Source of the DNA: Stenotrophomonas sp.
GTDB taxonomy: Bacteria > Pseudomonadota > Gammaproteobacteria > Xanthomonadales > Xanthomonadaceae
Assembly: GCA_003484865.1 (NCBI GenBank)
Contig: DMZT01000311.1
Span: 1 to 10,040 of the forward strand
Reading direction: 5' to 3'
DNA length: 10,040 bases
Position numbers and translations under genes: made by a program. The notes beneath the pieces were generated by a model. That model was not told the DNA's origin. It made no database searches and saw only the letters and a program-made list of their open reading frames with translations. Below are positions 3,811-9,688 of this stretch, piece after piece. Numbering within the stretch: the first letter of the stretch is position 1; every line of letters begins with the position of its first letter.

Positions 3811-4127
3811 CACGGCATCTCCGGCGGGATAACCGCGCCCACCTGGCGCATGGCTGACTCCAACGACATAACCCGCAGCCTCAGTCGGTGGGCCTCTTCC
3901 TGTGCGGTCATCCGCAACTTGATTTCCTCGGCTAGCTGGAGCGTGGTCGCCGCCTGAGTTTCCTCCAGCGACTTCACGCGCTGCACCAAGCCGTTCAACA
4001 GGTCGACGTTGGCGTCCGTCTCGGTCCGCTCTTTGCGGCGGGAGAGCAGCGCGCCCCACGTTTCCCTTGCCACCCAGAACGCAGCGAGACCACCGGCCAT
4101 CCACCACGGGACGGTTTCCTCGGTCAT
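3810..4127 (-). CDS. Small membrane-anchored coiled-coil protein, holin candidate
   Basis: I do not recognise the family of this 105-residue protein. It has an N-terminal hydrophobic stretch rich in Trp (VPWWMAGGLAAFWVA, residues 6-20), interrupted by Arg-Glu at 21-22. A basic cluster (SRRKER, about 29-34) and a long heptad-like charged region (about 40-92) follow, fitting a coiled coil facing the cytoplasm. The ATG (4125-4127) overlaps the endolysin stop by four bases (ATGA) and its own stop overlaps the Rz start by one base, so it belongs to the lysis operon. Its position makes it the best holin candidate in the window, but one short hydrophobic segment with charges is atypical. It could instead be an accessory or tethering protein. 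Confidence 0.7.
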   Translation of the reverse strand: MTEETVPWWMAGGLAAFWVARETWGALLSRRKERTETDANVDLLNGLVQRVKSLEETQAATTLQLAEEIKLRMTAQEEAHRLRLRVMSLESAMRQVGAVIPPEMP

Positions 4128-4612
4128 GACACGACCACGCCACCGGCTTTGCGGTAGGCCGCCAGCAGGTCATCCAGCTTCCGCTCGTGCTGGCCGTAGC
4201 CGGCGCCTGGCAGGCTCGCCCAGATGTTGCGGACGAAGCCGATCGCCTTGACGACATGACCGGCCTTGATCAGGTCCAGCGCCCGCCGCTCCCGGATCTG
4301 CTGGATTGCGATCAGATCCTGGCTGACCGGAGAAAAGTCCTCCAGACCCAGCAGACGGCGATACGCGTCGTAGTACCGCGATAGCAGCTGGTAGCGACCA
4401 GCAGCAGTGGACTTGATGCCGAGCCTGGGCAGCGAAACCAGCTCGCGCGGATGGTCGGCATAGCCGGTGAACAGCTTGCCTCCCACGATCACGTCATAGC
4501 CGTGATCCTTGGTCCGCTGCTTGCCGCTGTCGGTGCCCTCGGACCAGGCCAGCATGTCCAAGAAGGCGACGACGTTGGTGCCGCCTGCCTGTTGAGCGGT
4601 GATCTTGGCCAT
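4124..4612 (-). CDS. R: Endolysin, lambda R-type lytic transglycosylase
   Basis: This 162-residue protein closely matches lambda R (158 residues), the transglycosylase that cleaves the MurNAc-GlcNAc bond of peptidoglycan (GH104-type fold). Visible family motifs are FLDMLAWSEGT with the catalytic Glu at residue 25, KDHGYDVIVGGKLFTGYADH, STAAGRYQLLSRYYDAYR, DLIAIQQIRERRAL and NIWASLPGAGYGQHERK. There is no signal peptide or SAR segment, so it needs a holin. I chose ATG 4610-4612 because lambda R starts at about the same distance from FLDML and AGGA lies seven bases upstream. An in-frame GTG at 4709-4711 with an even better GGAGG site would add 33 residues. The stop overlaps the next start (ATGA). 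Confidence 0.95.
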   Translation of the reverse strand: MAKITAQQAGGTNVVAFLDMLAWSEGTDSGKQRTKDHGYDVIVGGKLFTGYADHPRELVSLPRLGIKSTAAGRYQLLSRYYDAYRRLLGLEDFSPVSQDLIAIQQIRERRALDLIKAGHVVKAIGFVRNIWASLPGAGYGQHERKLDDLLAAYRKAGGVVVS

Positions 4613-4717
4613 CAGAGGTTCCTGCAGAAATGTGCCCGCCCCGCTGCCGGCTAGGCGCGAGGGTAGATCCGGACGGGGGATGCGGGCGTAAATTGAGATA
4701 CTGGAATGCACCAGGTT

Positions 4718-4722
4718 CCTCC
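4718..4722 (-). promoter_or_regulatory. Second strong ribosome-binding site upstream of the endolysin
   Basis: On the minus strand GGAGG lies six bases before GTG 4709-4711, which is in frame with the endolysin. The site shares the core AGGAACCT with the one at 4620-4623 that serves ATG 4610-4612. Both starts could be used, or one may be left over from a duplication or from the insertion of the island. Confidence 0.45.
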
Positions 4723-4743
4723 CAACAGCAAGGTCAGGAAGAA

Positions 4744-5388
4744 ATGCTGAAGATCTTTGTTGATACGTGCGTATGGCGCCACTGGCTCTCGTGGGTTGCA
4801 GGCCGAATTAGCGACCTATCACCCCACTATGCAGACGCTACCGCATTCGATGACGTTCTCACGGCCATTAAACGTGGCCACGTCCAAGCACAGCTTCTGT
4901 ACGACGAGCGGGTAATGCTTGAGCTCGGGGAGGCCCTTGCTACAGAGGCCCGGAGGCGAACCGAAGGACATTCCACGCGTATACCTATCCCGGGCACACG
5001 TGCCGATGGCTCTTTCAAGGCCGATGGAAGCTTTCTCTACGGAGGCGTATACAGCGGGAGTCTGGACGTTCTGCTCACAGCGGATGGCATGGACCATGAA
5101 CGCCTGGTCCATGAGGCCGCCGTGCGCGCGCAGACAGCCGGGACGTTTCTCTACGACGAGAAGATTCGGCGTAAGGAATTTGATGTGGAACACCTAGAGG
5201 CCTCCCTCGAAGCCCAGGCTGACTACTTCGTCACGTCCGATGTCAGAACGATCATCCTTCGGCTTCAGCGGCTCTCCGAAAGGCTTCCCAACGATCAGGC
5301 GCTGCAGGCGGTCACGAGAACACTGCGCCGACCGACGCAGCTGAGAGGGGAACTCGTCTCGGCAGGAACTGGATTTCAGTCTTTCTGA
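4744..5388 (+). CDS. PIN-domain-like nuclease, accessory gene on the opposite strand
   Basis: This 214-residue protein begins MLKIFVDTCVWRHWL, the typical first strand of a PIN domain with Asp7. It carries a candidate second acid at Glu60 (ERVMLELGEA) and the C-terminal hallmark ADYFVTSDVRTI with Asp160 and Asp166. PIN domains are metal-dependent RNases, often toxins. The protein is longer than VapC toxins (about 130) because of an insert at about 75-145 with a repeated ADGSF (87-91, 93-97). The start is ATG 4744-4746 with AGGA a few bases upstream; the ORF is open upstream to 4630 without support. It is the only convincing plus-strand gene here, divergent from the endolysin. Its GC is lower than its neighbours (33/60 at 5221-5280). 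No small antitoxin gene is visible next to it. Substrate and role are unknown. Confidence 0.82.
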   Translation: MLKIFVDTCVWRHWLSWVAGRISDLSPHYADATAFDDVLTAIKRGHVQAQLLYDERVMLELGEALATEARRRTEGHSTRIPIPGTRADGSFKADGSFLYGGVYSGSLDVLLTADGMDHERLVHEAAVRAQTAGTFLYDEKIRRKEFDVEHLEASLEAQADYFVTSDVRTIILRLQRLSERLPNDQALQAVTRTLRRPTQLRGELVSAGTGFQSF

Positions 5389-5397
5389 AACGACGAA

Positions 5398-5434
5398 CCG
5401 CAGGTCACTGGACCTCCCGAGTCCAGGCCTGCGG
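5398..5434 (+). terminator. Stem-loop downstream of the PIN gene, probable terminator
   Basis: CCGCAGGT (5398-5405) pairs with GCCTGCGG (5427-5434, one G-U pair), and inside it CTGGAC (5408-5413) pairs with GTCCAG (5421-5426) around a 7-base loop; only CA is bulged. The stem begins ten bases after the PIN stop. No U-run follows directly, although TTGTTT appears at about 5449-5454. It could act in either direction. Confidence 0.5.
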
Positions 5435-5504
5435 CCGTTGAGTGCGGGTTGTTTGGAACCTCGCCCACGGTAGCTACTATGGCCTAGGTCTGGTTCCCAC
5501 TGCA

Positions 5505-5530
5505 ACTGCGGTAAGGTTCCTTACCGCAGT
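5505..5530. repeat. Perfect 12-bp inverted repeat ACTGCGGTAAGG with 2-base centre
   Basis: ACTGCGGTAAGG (5505-5516) and its exact reverse complement (5519-5530) flank TT. The GCGGTAA core recurs at 5540-5546 and 5561-5567, and as CGGTAA at 5578-5583. The very short loop fits a protein-binding dyad or cruciform better than an RNA terminator. Confidence 0.75.
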
Positions 5531-5612
5531 CGGGCGAATGCGGTAAGTTTCGTGGCGACTGCGGTAATCTTGCTTAACGGTAATCCGCTGAGAGTCGGGG
5601 TGCGCCAGCGAC

Positions 5613-5630
5613 CGCTTGTGGCCCAAAGCG
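5613..5630. repeat. 18-base hairpin repeat, copy 1 (CGCTT-N8-AAGCG)
   Basis: CGCTTGTGGCCCAAAGCG folds as a CGCTT/AAGCG stem, extended by one pair (C5612-G5631). It matches the copy at 5671-5688 in 15 of 18 positions, with all changes in the loop region. This looks like a REP-type dispersed element. Confidence 0.5.
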
Positions 5631-5644
5631 GCCAGCCGGCTGGA

Positions 5645-5656
5645 CCAGCCTCGGTA
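5645..5656 (+). repeat. 12-bp direct repeat flanking the ATPase gene, left copy
   Basis: CCAGCCTCGGTA occurs here and, in the same orientation, at 7345-7356. The two copies bracket the ATPase gene exactly 1700 bases apart and could mark ends of a transferred cassette. Confidence 0.5.
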
Positions 5657-5670
5657 GTGATGCCATTTTT

Positions 5671-5688
5671 CGCTTTTGACCCGAAGCG
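5671..5688. repeat. 18-base hairpin repeat, copy 2
   Basis: CGCTTTTGACCCGAAGCG has the same stem as copy 1, exactly 58 bases away. Its AAGCG arm can pair instead with GCGCTT at 5700-5705, giving alternative structures. It is 34 bases beyond the ATPase stop on the minus strand. Confidence 0.5.
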
Positions 5689-5721
5689 CACTCCAGTCAG
5701 CGCTTGTAGAACGGATGTGAC

Positions 5722-7176
5722 TTAGCTAAGCGGGCGTGCTTTTCCTCTGATCCGCTCTGCCGTATCCAGTGCACGTCGGAAACATGGGTGGATCTGTATC
5801 TCGTCGAAGCGAGGATGGTGAGGTTCCTGGAATGAGTAATGTGCGCGGGCGCCACCACCGGCGCCTCCTGCAACGTAGTCGCCTATGAGCCCCGTTTCGT
5901 ACAGGATGGCGATCATCTTATCTACGTCGGTGGCCTCAACAATTGCGTTGAACCACGGCTCGTTGATCTGCGATGTGGCGAGTAGAGTGACGATAACTTC
6001 ATCCAGATCCGCGCGACGAAGGTGATAGGCCTTGCGAGGAAAATGCGAGCGCCATGCGGAGAAAAATGCCTGCAGACTAGGATACTGATTGGAGAATTCG
6101 CTACATAGGTCCGTAAGTTTCCACGTCGAATAGCCGCTTTCCGCGGACTTCAACGCGATATCACTAGGCTCAAACCCGTCAACGCTTTCGGTGTAAGCAC
6201 GTACCAGCTGCAGCAACTCTCGCGGCCGATTAAGCGTACGCTCCACCAACCAGTTAACGGTATTCGATGTCGCGACGGTTTCCGGAAAAACACTTCCGAA
6301 TAGGTCATTAACTGGCCCGGCACCATGTACAGCTCGATTGAACTCAATGCGCGACTCAAGGATCTGAACGAGCTGCTCGCGCTCCCAGCGAATCAACTCG
6401 ATGTTCCGGTACTTGTCCGCATGCTGAGTGATGCCCATCAGCAGCGCATATACGTCCTCACGAAGGAAGATCACGGGAAAGATGTTCGCGCTTTTTCCAT
6501 TGAGGATTGTAGCCGCACGCAGTAATCCAAGCAGCAACTGGTTAGAGGCAGTCGAGTTATCCCAGCCCTGATCCAGGTCATCGAACATCACTACGAATTG
6601 TGCACCACTGGCCGCAAGCTCGAGGGCGTGATGTTCAAGGGCGTCTACATCGGCGATATTGCGTAGCTCCTTCTCAAGATTCAGCCCAAACTCCCCGAGC
6701 TCGCCAACTTTGGCTTTCGTGCGTCTCAGGACCTCGGTAATGTTCTCCAGCATGTCCAGTGAAGTGCGGTTGAGCTGCGTCGCCACATTGCGCGCGAACG
6801 CTTCGCTATCTCTAGCGTATCTACCCTTTACACCATGGCCGACAGCTGCCAAACAGTCGGTCAAAATCTGCCGCAGCCAAGTGTGCTGGAAGAAGATCTC
6901 CTGCCCGAAGGCATGCTGCAGGTCACCCTCGTTTAGGATGCTTCGAATCGTCGTGTACTGTGGAGCGACGGAAATGACAAAGGTATTGGGCTGAGCCTCG
7001 AAATGCGTCTTCAGACGCGAGCGCAACGCGCTCTTGCCGGTACCCTTCCGGCCGATAACGAGCTGCTTCTGTTTGTTTTTGATCCGCCGGAATGCAGTTG
7101 AATCGTAGAAGTACTGGAGCAGGTGCGGGTCGTTCTCGGCGCTGTCCGCGCCCCAGTCGATCTCACTTAGTCGCAT
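5722..7176 (-). CDS. P-loop ATPase, Sll1717-type (STAND/KAP-like), accessory gene
   Basis: This 484-residue cytoplasmic protein has the start pattern of the Sll1717-type ATPases: QYFYDSTAFRRIKNKQKQ leading into Walker A GRKGTGKS (residues 42-49). Walker B is FVVMFDDLDQGW (194-205). Next come a sensor-like strand FPVIFLREDVY (233-243), WEREQLVQILESRI (264-277) and a helical part with RTLNRPRELLQLVRAY (about 312-328). The C-terminal about 130 residues look like helical or winged-helix modules. No nuclease motif or membrane segment is evident. Family members often lie in mobile and defence-type regions, but I know no proven activity. ATG 7174-7176 has AAGGAAG eight bases upstream. GC is much lower than in phage genes (25/60 at 6061-6120), a sign of transfer. 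It faces the PIN gene tail to tail. Confidence 0.85.
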   Translation of the reverse strand: MRLSEIDWGADSAENDPHLLQYFYDSTAFRRIKNKQKQLVIGRKGTGKSALRSRLKTHFEAQPNTFVISVAPQYTTIRSILNEGDLQHAFGQEIFFQHTWLRQILTDCLAAVGHGVKGRYARDSEAFARNVATQLNRTSLDMLENITEVLRRTKAKVGELGEFGLNLEKELRNIADVDALEHHALELAASGAQFVVMFDDLDQGWDNSTASNQLLLGLLRAATILNGKSANIFPVIFLREDVYALLMGITQHADKYRNIELIRWEREQLVQILESRIEFNRAVHGAGPVNDLFGSVFPETVATSNTVNWLVERTLNRPRELLQLVRAYTESVDGFEPSDIALKSAESGYSTWKLTDLCSEFSNQYPSLQAFFSAWRSHFPRKAYHLRRADLDEVIVTLLATSQINEPWFNAIVEATDVDKMIAILYETGLIGDYVAGGAGGGARAHYSFQEPHHPRFDEIQIHPCFRRALDTAERIRGKARPLS

Positions 7177-7344
7177 GCCACTTCCTTCCTTGATAGACGG
7201 TAGGATGATGCTGGAAAGCAGCCTGGCGACGCAACCAGCTCGCGCGCGCCAACCATGGTGATAGAGAGAAGCGAGATGTCCAATCGCTAACTAGCGCGCT
7301 CTGCCATCCTGCAAAATGATGGAAAAGCTAGGCCCGGCGGCCCG

Positions 7345-7356
7345 CCAGCCTCGGTA
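7345..7356 (+). repeat. 12-bp direct repeat flanking the ATPase gene, right copy
   Basis: CCAGCCTCGGTA is identical to 5645-5656. It lies 169 bases upstream of the ATPase start, near the boundary where base composition changes from island to phage. Confidence 0.5.
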
Positions 7357-7506
7357 AGGCATGGCTGGGGCGGATCGGGATCTAGCTGCCGGACCTGTGC
7401 TCTCTGTCCTCGAATGCAGCCAGCGGTTAGTTTGGCCGATGCATATTACATTAGGCTGGCCGCGACCCATTTTCTATGCGCCGAAGCGAAACAAGGCGGC
7501 ACTACA

Positions 7507-7519
7507 GACCTGCCAGGTC
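7507..7519. repeat. Perfect dyad GACCTG-C-CAGGTC after the Q-like gene
   Basis: The 6-bp arms meet at a single base, immediately after (on the minus strand) the stop codon at 7523-7525. The loop is too small for a good RNA hairpin, so a dimeric-protein site is more likely. It could also mark the end of the early operon. Confidence 0.4.
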
Positions 7520-7522
7520 ACC

Positions 7523-8284
7523 TTAGTTGAACACCCTGCCGCTGAACTCCTTTCGCCCATCTTCCAGCGCTTGGCGAAGCGTTGCGGCAGCGATCTCATA
7601 CACGCGCAGGTACTCGCCCTTTCGCATCTTCGCAGCCTTGGCCGCATCCTGTGCAGCGATCTTCCCTTCCGGCCACACCAGATCGTTAACCGCGTCCTGC
7701 AGCACCAAGCGCATGCGCCAGCGGTCGGCCGGGTCATCCATTCGCAGCGCGGGCTTTGCGCCTATGCGGCGCTGCCCCTGGATCTGTCGCATTACACGCC
7801 TGGCCAGAGAACGCCCCAGCGACGACAGAGACACTCCCTGCCCTCGCAGCGCCACCGCCAGCACGGCCTGCTTGGCGACAGAGTCCCGCATCATGCCTAC
7901 TGCGGCGGCGATGTCAGCAGCTGTCAGCGGCGGCATGGTTGACCTTCCGTCCGATGGCTCGCGGAAACTTCCGCCCACGACCATGCGGGCGATCAGTTCG
8001 AGCGGGTCACGGTGCAGGGTGGTCTCTGGCACTGGCACTCGGCCGCGAGCAGCGCTGACTAGCGGAGGCGCCGACATGGAGAATGGCTTCTGCGCCCATG
8101 CCCGCACGGCAAGTATCTCCGCATCAGTGCCAACGTGCGATTCCCCTCGCGCGCCACAGCGCGCGCAGACGACCTGCGCCGTGCGGCGACTGTCGACACT
8201 GCCTCGCGCGCGCACCCGCACATCGTCGCTGCCACAGTTGCCGCAGGCCTTCATGCCTTGCACCGGCATGGCCACTGCCGACAT
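7523..8284 (-). CDS. Zinc-ribbon protein at the Q position (candidate late regulator)
   Basis: This 253-residue protein has an N-terminal zinc ribbon: CGNCGS (C14, C17) and CARCGARG (C40, C43), followed by DAEILAVRAWAQ. That is the pattern of small Lar-type phage proteins (restriction alleviation). A Pro/Ser-rich linker (about 67-115) leads to a helical, basic C-terminal domain (about 130-250) containing GRSLARRVMRQIQ and AKMRKGEYLRVYEIAAATLRQAL, which resembles a DNA-binding helix-turn-helix. The gene is last in the early operon, the place of the antiterminator Q in lambdoid phages, so a late-gene activator is a reasonable inference. No Q family match can be claimed. ATG 8282-8284 shares a base with the preceding stop (TGATG) and has GAGGTG upstream. 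An internal ATG at residue 11 is a less likely start. Confidence 0.75.
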   Translation of the reverse strand: MSAVAMPVQGMKACGNCGSDDVRVRARGSVDSRRTAQVVCARCGARGESHVGTDAEILAVRAWAQKPFSMSAPPLVSAARGRVPVPETTLHRDPLELIARMVVGGSFREPSDGRSTMPPLTAADIAAAVGMMRDSVAKQAVLAVALRGQGVSLSSLGRSLARRVMRQIQGQRRIGAKPALRMDDPADRWRMRLVLQDAVNDLVWPEGKIAAQDAAKAAKMRKGEYLRVYEIAAATLRQALEDGRKEFSGRVFN

Positions 8285-8897: not shown

Positions 8898-9688
8898 CAG
8901 CACACCTCCGGCGTCAGCTGCATCCGAGTCGCCGCGTCGGCCTGCGCCCAGGTCATCTGGTCCCGGTCGATGCTCTCGGCCAGCCGCGACAGACCCTTTG
9001 CGGTCACCAGCACCTGCTCGTGCACGCGATCAGGCTCTCCTTCCCTCCGCTGCACGCTGGCCTTGTGCGTCAGTACGCCCTGCTGCAGGCGGGTCTGGTA
9101 GGCCAGCCAGTTCTTGCTGCAGGCGCGGCGGTAGATCCAGCCATGCTCGGCCAGCCAAGCGAACAGCTGGCGCCGCTGCACCTGCAGCATCTTGGCCGCG
9201 GTGCTGATGTTGAAGGCGCCATCGGCTTGGCTCAGCCGCAGCAGCGCGCGCACCTGCGGCTCCTGGTATTGCACGCGCGCTTCGAGGATCTCGGCCTTCT
9301 CGCTGTAGGACAGCAGCAGCGCGCGCAGCGTCGCCGGATCGGTCAGCGCCTGCATCGGGTCAGGTGCGGGAGTGCCGGCAGCCAGCGCATCGTACGCGCG
9401 GATCACCTGCAGGCTGAAGCTCGGGCTGATCCACATGGCGTAGGCGTAGACCAGCTCGCGCACCACGTAGCTGCCACCGTAGCGGCCGGCCACTGAGTGC
9501 ACCGGGTAAACCCGGGAATCCCCGGAATTGACCAGCTCGGCCACCAGTTCCTCGGTCTGCTTCAGGCGCTGCCAGTCGCTGGGCTGGTGCCGCTTGGCGC
9601 CGCCGGCGGCCTGGTGCAGATCGTTAAGGCAGAACCTGCCCACGTCGTCGCGGCGCACGCTTGCGCCGCCAATCATCATCGCGTTCAA
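8897..9688 (-). CDS. KilA-N / KilAC (ANT) antirepressor-type DNA-binding protein
   Basis: This 263-residue protein has an N-terminal KilA-N domain (about 7-101). Typical marks are VGRFCLNDLHQAAGG, KRHQPSDWQRLKQTEELV and GGSYVVRELVYAYAMWISPSF followed by LQVIRAYDAL. The C-terminal part (about 125-240) matches the phage antirepressor KilAC/ANT domain, with ISTAAKMLQVQRRQLFAWL, EHGWIYRRACSKNWLAYQ and VLVTAKGLSRLAE. Such proteins regulate phage gene expression, in some phages by opposing the repressor. The start is TTG (9686-9688): GGAGG lies seven bases upstream, and the codon overlaps the upstream stop by four bases (TTGA). The ATG codons at 9679 and 9676 lie too far from the ribosome-binding site. 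Domain calls are confident; the regulatory target is not visible. Confidence 0.93.
   Translation of the reverse strand: MNAMMIGGASVRRDDVGRFCLNDLHQAAGGAKRHQPSDWQRLKQTEELVAELVNSGDSRVYPVHSVAGRYGGSYVVRELVYAYAMWISPSFSLQVIRAYDALAAGTPAPDPMQALTDPATLRALLLSYSEKAEILEARVQYQEPQVRALLRLSQADGAFNISTAAKMLQVQRRQLFAWLAEHGWIYRRACSKNWLAYQTRLQQGVLTHKASVQRREGEPDRVHEQVLVTAKGLSRLAESIDRDQMTWAQADAATRMQLTPEVC

What the first reader, a model, noticed from the sequence alone, without database searches (positions are those of the whole stretch)
4744..7176. Low-GC PIN nuclease plus Sll1717-type ATPase inserted between the phage regulator and lysis genes
Two accessory genes interrupt the usual early-regulator-to-lysis order. 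Both have much lower GC than the phage genes. A nuclease-fold protein next to a STAND/KAP-like ATPase in a prophage accessory slot is the kind of arrangement seen in anti-phage defence or superinfection exclusion. They converge rather than form one operon, so partnership is inference, and each could act alone.
Basis: partly seen in the sequence, partly recalled or inferred. Interest (0 to 1): 0.7.

Follow-up and report, generated by a model that had tools for sequence, protein, structure and literature searches.

The report
Swappable defence genes in bacterial prophages
Two unrelated, probably virus-fighting genes sit in two neighbouring swap sites of a dormant bacterial virus in Stenotrophomonas, on either side of a fixed control element, and relatives of this virus carry other defence genes in the same place.

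Summary
Both genes are real: a PIN-fold nuclease (4744-5388 +) and a Sll1717-family P-loop ATPase (5722-7176 -), between a regulator-like gene and the lysis genes of a Stenotrophomonas prophage. They are not a pair. Each sits in its own exchange slot; a 192-bp noncoding element (5388-5579) separates them and was matched in all 48 viral contigs (the window's own included) recovered with the regulator-like gene. In 45 non-redundant loci, slot A (beside the regulator) is 40-2553 bp long. In one or two relatives each it holds Septu PtuAB, a PtuA-like ATPase, RT-protease, GmrSD_N+HEPN, a TIR protein, or Mrr+histidine kinase. Slot B (beside the endolysin) holds a Dam-like methylase in 25, PIN in 5, neither in 10, both in 0 of 40 bracketed loci. 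The ATPase also occurs, 97% identical, in a sister prophage with the methylase and no PIN; four other PIN prophages lack the ATPase. 'Prophage defence slot' is well supported, 'nuclease-ATPase partnership' is not. Likely roles: ATPase, stand-alone anti-phage ATPase; PIN, stand-alone RNase of the lysogen, antisense to the late operon and so shut off on induction. No phenotype was tested.

The parts
4744..5388 (+). PIN-fold nuclease gene, 214 aa, slot B cargo; strand opposite to the late operon
   Evidence: dN/dS 0.11-0.21 against four relatives
4692..5387 (.). slot B cargo unit in this phage (PIN plus short 5' stretch); replaced by a D12 methylase unit or missing in relatives
   Evidence: left edge: conserved endolysin leader ends about 4691; right edge: conserved element begins 5388
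5388..5579 (-). conserved 192-bp noncoding element between slots A and B; putative late promoter/terminator control region (inferred)
   Evidence: blastn match in 48 of 48 contigs L049-L096 (L049 is the window's own contig; L096 partial; split in seven) plus L017 and L003-L006, not in L007; alignment
5398..5434 (-). GC-rich hairpin followed on the - strand by TTCGTCGTTT, terminator-like in the late direction
   Evidence: -29.4 kcal/mol, z -4.0 on the - strand and -28.7, z -4.5 on the + strand; nearly unchanged in 43 element copies, 36 distinct
5502..5579 (.). cluster of four TTACCGCA/TGCGGTAA motifs including a perfect 12+12 palindrome; possible regulator-binding sites
   Evidence: all four window copies lie here, none elsewhere in the window
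5722..7176 (-). P-loop ATPase, Sll1717 family, 484 aa, nearest in fold to ORC/STAND-type AAA+ proteins; slot A cargo
   Evidence: NF047389 250 bits; model pLDDT 86
5580..7525 (.). slot A cargo unit in this phage (ATPase with about 350 bp upstream and 142 bp downstream)
   Evidence: apart from the window's own contig, only L017 matches the upstream flank and the whole downstream flank
7523..8284 (-). regulator-like gene (253 aa, Lar-like Zn-ribbon N-terminus) bounding slot A; position suggests a Q-type late regulator (inferred)
4124..4612 (-). endolysin (start probably at 4612, not 4711), bounding slot B
   Evidence: phrog_90 endolysin 186 bits; ATG at 4612

Best explanation
The window shows a two-slot cargo hotspot of a Stenotrophomonas temperate phage. 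Slot A lies between a regulator-like gene and a conserved 192-bp element; slot B lies between that element and the endolysin. Shown: the slots, their borders, independent exchange of PIN and ATPase, and defence-family genes in slot A of relatives. Inferred: (1) the ATPase is a stand-alone anti-phage gene, an ORC/STAND-like AAA+ switch that assembles on a signal of an incoming phage and blocks its DNA replication or signals to host factors, since it has no fused effector that I could see; (2) PIN is a stand-alone RNase that cleaves RNA in the lysogen when another phage infects, causing abortive infection; (3) the element is the late promoter/terminator region, so on induction late transcription runs antisense through PIN and silences it, protecting the prophage's own burst.
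For: Hotspot: element in 48 of 48 viral contigs; 45 non-redundant loci, slot A 40-2553 bp in the 44 where it could be measured. Slot A cargo with strong PADLOC scores: PtuA 524 and PtuB 221 bits (L054), PtuA-like 110 (L086), RT-Protease 476 (L084), NsnA/GmrSD_N 203 (L073), TIR PDC-S35 246 (L051), while 10 core phage genes of the window gave two weak hits of 18 and 32 bits. Independence: L017 has the ATPase (97%) with a D12 methylase and no PIN; L006, L060, L072, L091 have PIN without ATPase; outside this hotspot the ATPase lies at 53% identity in 20 kb of a chromosome (L032) and at 55% in 9.8 kb of another viral contig (L026), neither with a tblastn match to PIN at E <= 1e-3. Orientation: PIN opposite to the regulator-like gene in 5 of 5, the methylase on the same strand in 25 of 25. 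Constraint. Precedent for antisense nesting of a prophage RNase defence gene: Tha/ith of S. aureus phages (PMC11087260, abstract and passages). Precedents for a one-protein PIN defence (DS-3) and for the validated system DS-41, whose NCBIfam model the ATPase matches weakly: PMC13092281 (sections 5, 7, 15 read).
Against: No phage test exists for either gene. Of about 15 slot A cargo types that I told apart, 6 have a defence-linked match; the other 9, the ATPase among them, have none above threshold, and one is an NmrA-like protein. Defence matches are in slot A, so they speak for the ATPase more than for PIN. The sigma-70 and terminator scans found nothing in 4500-7700, and the hairpin folds equally well on both strands, so the late-promoter reading rests on position, motif clustering and the T-rich tail. 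Slot B more often carries a methylase, which need not be defensive. The ATPase matches the DS-41 model only weakly (42 bits, cut-off 370). Of eight further genome loci with a regulator-like gene, only two had the whole element, three a part and three none.
Confidence: 0.65

Rival explanations
1. PIN and ATPase form one two-gene defence system (ATPase as sensor, PIN as effector).
For: Adjacent in the window; P-loop ATPase plus nuclease is a common defence layout (established knowledge).
Against: 1 of 5 PIN loci and 1 of 2 ATPase loci have both; opposite strands; a conserved phage element lies between them; the ATPase is 97% identical beside a methylase instead.
Confidence: 0.06
2. PIN is a phage-fitness gene, not defence: an RNase that trims or destroys the phage's own late or lysis transcripts to hold back lysis until late transcription overrides it.
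For: PIN lies next to the endolysin in 6 of 6 PIN loci, including L007, where the 12.6 kb fetched show no match to the window's regulator, terminase or element; it is antisense to the late genes.
Against: 35 of 40 bracketed loci of the same phage group do without it. The usual alternative occupant, a methylase, does not suggest a lysis-timing role.
Confidence: 0.27
3. PIN is a VapC-type toxin of an addiction (toxin-antitoxin) module that stabilises the prophage.
Against: 53 bp between the endolysin leader and PIN and none between PIN and the element leave no room for an antitoxin gene on the same strand; no antisense frame stays open over most of PIN in all six loci compared. An RNA antitoxin is not excluded.
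Confidence: 0.1
4. The ATPase is a selfish or housekeeping replication/recombination ATPase (ORC-like) with no defence role.
For: Fold closest to ORC/Cdc6, archaeal STAND-like ATPases and TnsC; more than half of the slot A cargo types have no known defence match.
Against: Rare (2 of 91 genus genomes; 3 of 395 family genomes), exchangeable as a unit, and in a slot that in relatives holds defence systems.
Confidence: 0.22

Closest known systems
Prophage antiviral hotspots of P2-like phages, P4-like satellites and prophages of other species (Rousset et al. 2022, PMC9122126; passages read)
   Same: Small locus (about 1-5 kb) of high gene turnover between two conserved phage genes, holding diverse anti-phage systems; TIR and Septu are among those named in the passages.
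   Different: Different phage group (Stenotrophomonas, GpA-type terminase); site at the regulator-lysis junction, not next to cos; two slots divided by a conserved noncoding element.
Sll1717-family P-loop ATPases (NCBIfam NF047389)
   Same: Near full-length match, 250 bits with cut-off 75; Walker A GRKGxGKS and a DDLD Walker B invariant in 44 aligned sequences, 43 of the 120 listed homologues plus the window's own.
   Different: No published function found here: 0 papers of the library held the term 'Sll1717'.
DS-41 anti-phage protein (DefensePredictor, PMC13092281; sections 5, 7, 15 read)
   Same: The ATPase matches its NCBIfam model NF053860 weakly, best stretch residues 12-71 (42 bits).
   Different: Far below the curated cut-off of 370; the sections read give no mechanism for DS-41, so only a distant kinship is indicated.
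DS-3 and DS-5 PIN defence systems (PMC13092281)
   Same: PIN RNase with catalytic residues needed for defence; DS-3 is a single protein with no antitoxin.
   Different: Sequences not compared here; the DS-3 PIN is split between N and C terminus, DS-5 needs a second protein.
Tha/ith noncontiguous operon of S. aureus prophages (PMC11087260; abstract and passages read)
   Same: RNase-type defence gene overlapped by antisense phage transcription, so that defence is tied to lysogeny.
   Different: Tha is a HEPN protein inhibited by the product of an overlapping antisense gene; no conserved antisense ORF over PIN was found.

Membership tests
PIN-domain nucleases | PIN fold | tested here: met
PIN-domain nucleases | conserved acidic active site (about four Asp/Glu) | tested here: met
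   D7, E60, E145, D147, E149, D166 invariant in 20 aligned sequences, the window's own included
PIN-domain nucleases | RNase activity | not testable with these tools
   needs purified protein
VapBC toxin-antitoxin | adjacent cognate antitoxin gene in the same operon | tested here: not met
   slot B borders leave no room on the same strand
HARP (RNA-free RNase P) | sequence family membership | tested here: inconclusive
Sll1717-family P-loop ATPase | NF047389 score above the curated cut-off | tested here: met
   250.3 against 75
STAND/ORC-type AAA+ | AAA+ core with ORC/STAND-like architecture and C-terminal winged helix | tested here: inconclusive
DS-41 | NF053860 score above the curated cut-off | tested here: not met
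   42.3 against 370
Prophage defence hotspot | variable cargo between two conserved phage genes | tested here: met
   45 non-redundant loci
Prophage defence hotspot | cargo includes known defence systems | tested here: met
   control
Prophage defence hotspot | cargo shown to protect against phage | not testable with these tools
   no plating data
Noncontiguous antisense operon (Tha-like) | lytic-phase transcript running antisense through the defence gene | not testable with these tools
   orientation fits in 5 of 5; transcripts not measured
Noncontiguous antisense operon (Tha-like) | small antisense inhibitor gene | tested here: not met
   no antisense frame stays open over most of PIN in all six PIN genes compared

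The most novel reading that the evidence does not exclude
A conserved late-control element splits a phage cargo hotspot into two functionally different slots: an upstream slot for defence systems with their own promoters, and a downstream slot where either a late-expressed DNA methylase (sense) or a lysogeny-expressed PIN RNase (antisense) is installed, so that the phage's own late transcription acts as the off-switch that spares it from its RNase defence. The PIN family itself is unnamed and would be a new one-gene anti-phage RNase.
Probability: 0.33. Interest if true: 0.66.

Novelty: new member of a known kind. Interest (0 to 1): 0.52.

Why it matters
It points to a reservoir of candidate defence genes in a group of Stenotrophomonas phages. 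Several recurring slot A proteins (279-aa, 301-aa, 352-aa and 192-aa families), the Sll1717 ATPase and an unnamed PIN family are now linked by position to known defence genes and can be cloned and tested. The antisense PIN layout makes the question of how a prophage avoids its own RNase defence directly testable. The same data correct a tempting error, that adjacency within a defence slot means partnership.

Tried and rejected
Partnership of the two proteins: rejected from the exchange pattern. Overlapping inhibitor for PIN: no conserved antisense ORF. Known-phage homologues: PIN had no match in 50,697 phage records; the ATPase matched 2 Klebsiella phage records at 22% and no plasmid at E 1e-30. 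Profile searches of solved-structure sequences gave nothing useful (ATPase: one designed repeat protein at 1.6e-4; PIN: best 0.0088). Class-wide genome search with the ATPase profile: 1 of 369, only the window's genome. Rfam: no match in the window. Consensus promoter and terminator scans of 4500-7700: none. Viral structure library for the ATPase: one match at E <= 0.001, an unnamed protein at 8.5e-4. Two weak, partial PIN matches in named genomes, Polaromonas (L011) and Geobacter (L012), were not pursued beyond a tblastn that confirmed short matches.

Literature: 'Sll1717' in 0 papers. PMC11680222 (S. maltophilia defence islands) and PMC10746704 (S. maltophilia prophages) were searched by term only. 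on PIN/HARP and phage defence: listing only, nothing read.

How the slot count was made: 59 loci went in, namely L049-L096 and eight genome loci L097-L104 found with the regulator-like protein, and L006, L007, L017, which first came in through PIN or ATPase (the genomes behind L006 and L017 were also found with the regulator). Seven were not scored for want of a regulator or hairpin match: L007, L096, L099, L100, L101, L103, L104. Seven were dropped as duplicates: L059, L061, L089, L090, L094, L097, L098. Of the 45 left, five had no bracketed slot B and one (L102) no measured slot A. Of 16 regulator matches in 14 genomes, 11 regions beyond the window's own were fetched; L018 and L019 were left out of the count because L072 and L006 represent them. 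Content was assigned by homology, so a slot scored 'neither' may hold an unrecognised small gene. L079/L080/L082 and L086/L087 are near-identical and were counted apart. If methylase and PIN were placed independently, 0 of 40 with both would have probability 0.0046, but the loci are related and one slot may simply hold one unit, so this is not strong evidence of incompatibility.

Of 20 cargo proteins scanned with PADLOC, six scored 110-524 bits, three (all L055) 23-37 bits, eleven had no match.

Full report
WHAT IS THERE. The window is part of a Stenotrophomonas prophage: GpA-type terminase (152-2239 -), small-terminase-like gene, spanin and holin region (positions inferred), endolysin (phrog_90), then the two genes of the finding, then a 253-aa regulator-like gene, a KilA-N/ANT regulator and a resolvase-like gene. 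The genus comes from two named relatives, S. bentonitica VV6 and S. geniculata ATCC 19374, whose loci carry PIN, terminase and regulator matches. The window's own genome is a draft of 508 contigs, 78% complete. A viral contig of 26 kb contains 10,036 of the window's 10,040 bases at 100%.

THEY ARE NOT A PAIR. Four of the five non-redundant PIN loci of this backbone lack the ATPase. A sixth, distant PIN (45%, L007) sits beside a similar endolysin (86-91%); the 12.6 kb fetched there show no match to the window's terminase, regulator, element or ATPase. Conversely one genome (G040) has a prophage with the ATPase 97% identical in the same place, but a D12 (Dam-like) methylase where PIN should be. 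Elsewhere the ATPase lies in a chromosomal region where I recognised no prophage (L032, 53% identity, 20 kb) and in another viral contig (L026, 55%, 9.8 kb), with no tblastn match to PIN in either. In 91 genus genomes PIN occurs in 3, the ATPase in 2, both in 1. Wider draws: ATPase 3 of 395 family genomes, PIN 2 of 398 order genomes.

THE HOTSPOT. I used the regulator-like protein to collect related loci: 48 viral contigs, the window's own among them, and 14 of 91 genus genomes. Between that gene and the lysis genes each of the 48 contigs carries a stretch matching window 5388-5579 (81-100% identity, one partial). In seven of the 48 the element is split by a T5orf172-domain gene. Of eight further genome loci fetched, two had the whole element, three a part, three none. 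Of 59 loci examined, 52 had both regulator and hairpin matches and 45 of these are non-redundant. Slot A, between regulator and element, ranges from 40 to 2553 bp (44 measured). Slot B, between element and endolysin leader, was bracketed in 40: methylase 25, PIN 5, neither 10, both 0. PIN is on the strand opposite to the regulator-like gene in 5 of 5; the methylase is on the same strand in 25 of 25.

WHAT RELATIVES CARRY IN SLOT A. I told apart about 15 cargo types from the clusters. Strong PADLOC matches are PtuA/PtuB Septu (524/221 bits), a PtuA-like ATPase (110), RT-Protease (476), GmrSD_N/NsnA (203) with a HEPN neighbour, and a CAP12-type TIR protein (246). Mrr_cat with a histidine kinase and response regulator is a sixth by Pfam, weak in PADLOC. 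The other nine types, the ATPase among them, have no such match; recurring ones are 279-aa, 301-aa, 352-aa and 192-aa families. Ten core phage genes of the window gave two weak PADLOC hits of 18 and 32 bits. By position, then, the ATPase is a candidate defence gene. PIN is in the other slot, so this argument applies to it less directly.

THE ELEMENT. Read in the late direction (- strand) the element has spaced TTACCGCA motifs, a perfect palindrome CTGCGGTAAGGAACCTTACCGCAG, about 70 bp, then a GC-rich hairpin followed by TTCGTCGTTT directly before slot B. The hairpin folds at -29.4 kcal/mol, z -4.0 on this strand, and about as well on the other; it is nearly unchanged in 43 copies, 36 distinct. 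The four TTACCGCA motifs of the window lie in the element and none elsewhere in it; in the five other loci listed the motif is likewise confined to one cluster. This is the position where lambda-type phages keep the late promoter and its terminator (established knowledge), so I read it as the late control region. No consensus promoter or terminator was found by the simple scans, so this remains inference.

MECHANISM, SHOWN AND INFERRED. Shown: modular exchange, sharp borders, orientation bias, low dN/dS for both genes. Inferred: the ATPase works alone as a nucleotide-dependent switch against incoming phage DNA or proteins; PIN works alone as an RNase in the lysogen; late transcription through PIN on the other strand switches it off at induction. 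The last step has a published precedent in principle, the Tha/ith arrangement of S. aureus prophages (PMC11087260), but the small antisense inhibitor gene of that system has no counterpart here.

KNOWN OR NEW. Prophage defence hotspots are known (PMC9122126), so this is a new member of a known kind. I found no paper describing this slot in the searches named under Tried and rejected; that library lacks most subscription papers. The PIN family and the role of Sll1717 ATPases appear uncharacterised in what I searched.

Noticed in passing
L058, L060, L070, L072, L084 (and L003, L004 6705-7196): A T5orf172/GIY-YIG-like gene lies inside the conserved element, replacing about positions 51-100 of it, which looks like a homing-type insertion into the control region.
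   Followed up: partly
L064 around 9281-9353: The TTACCGCA motif array is duplicated, as expected of binding-site copy-number change.
   Followed up: no
L062, L065, L095 slot A: A 192-aa protein containing, near its start in L062, MDIYIDTNF looks by eye like another PIN-type nuclease in slot A; no Pfam, NCBIfam or PADLOC match.
   Followed up: partly
L055 2837-4960: Mrr nuclease, histidine kinase and response regulator in a row in slot A, a possible phosphorelay-type defence operon.
   Followed up: partly
L053/L081/L088/L093 (279 aa), L056/L063/L066/L067 (301 aa), L006/L057/L092 (352 aa): Recurring slot A proteins; the representative of each that was scanned had no PADLOC, Pfam or NCBIfam match. 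Candidate new defence genes.
   Followed up: partly
window 4612-4711: The endolysin probably starts at 4612 (MAKITAQQ...) rather than at the GTG at 4711, leaving about 130 bp between it and PIN.
   Followed up: no
window 7523-8284: The 253-aa regulator-like protein has a Lar-like zinc ribbon N-terminus and no other assignment; a possible new type of Q-like late regulator.
   Followed up: no
L004 7336-7605, L005, L058: A conserved small ORF of about 89 aa (MAEMLQITRT... in L004) recurs in slot A of loci without a larger slot A gene.
   Followed up: no
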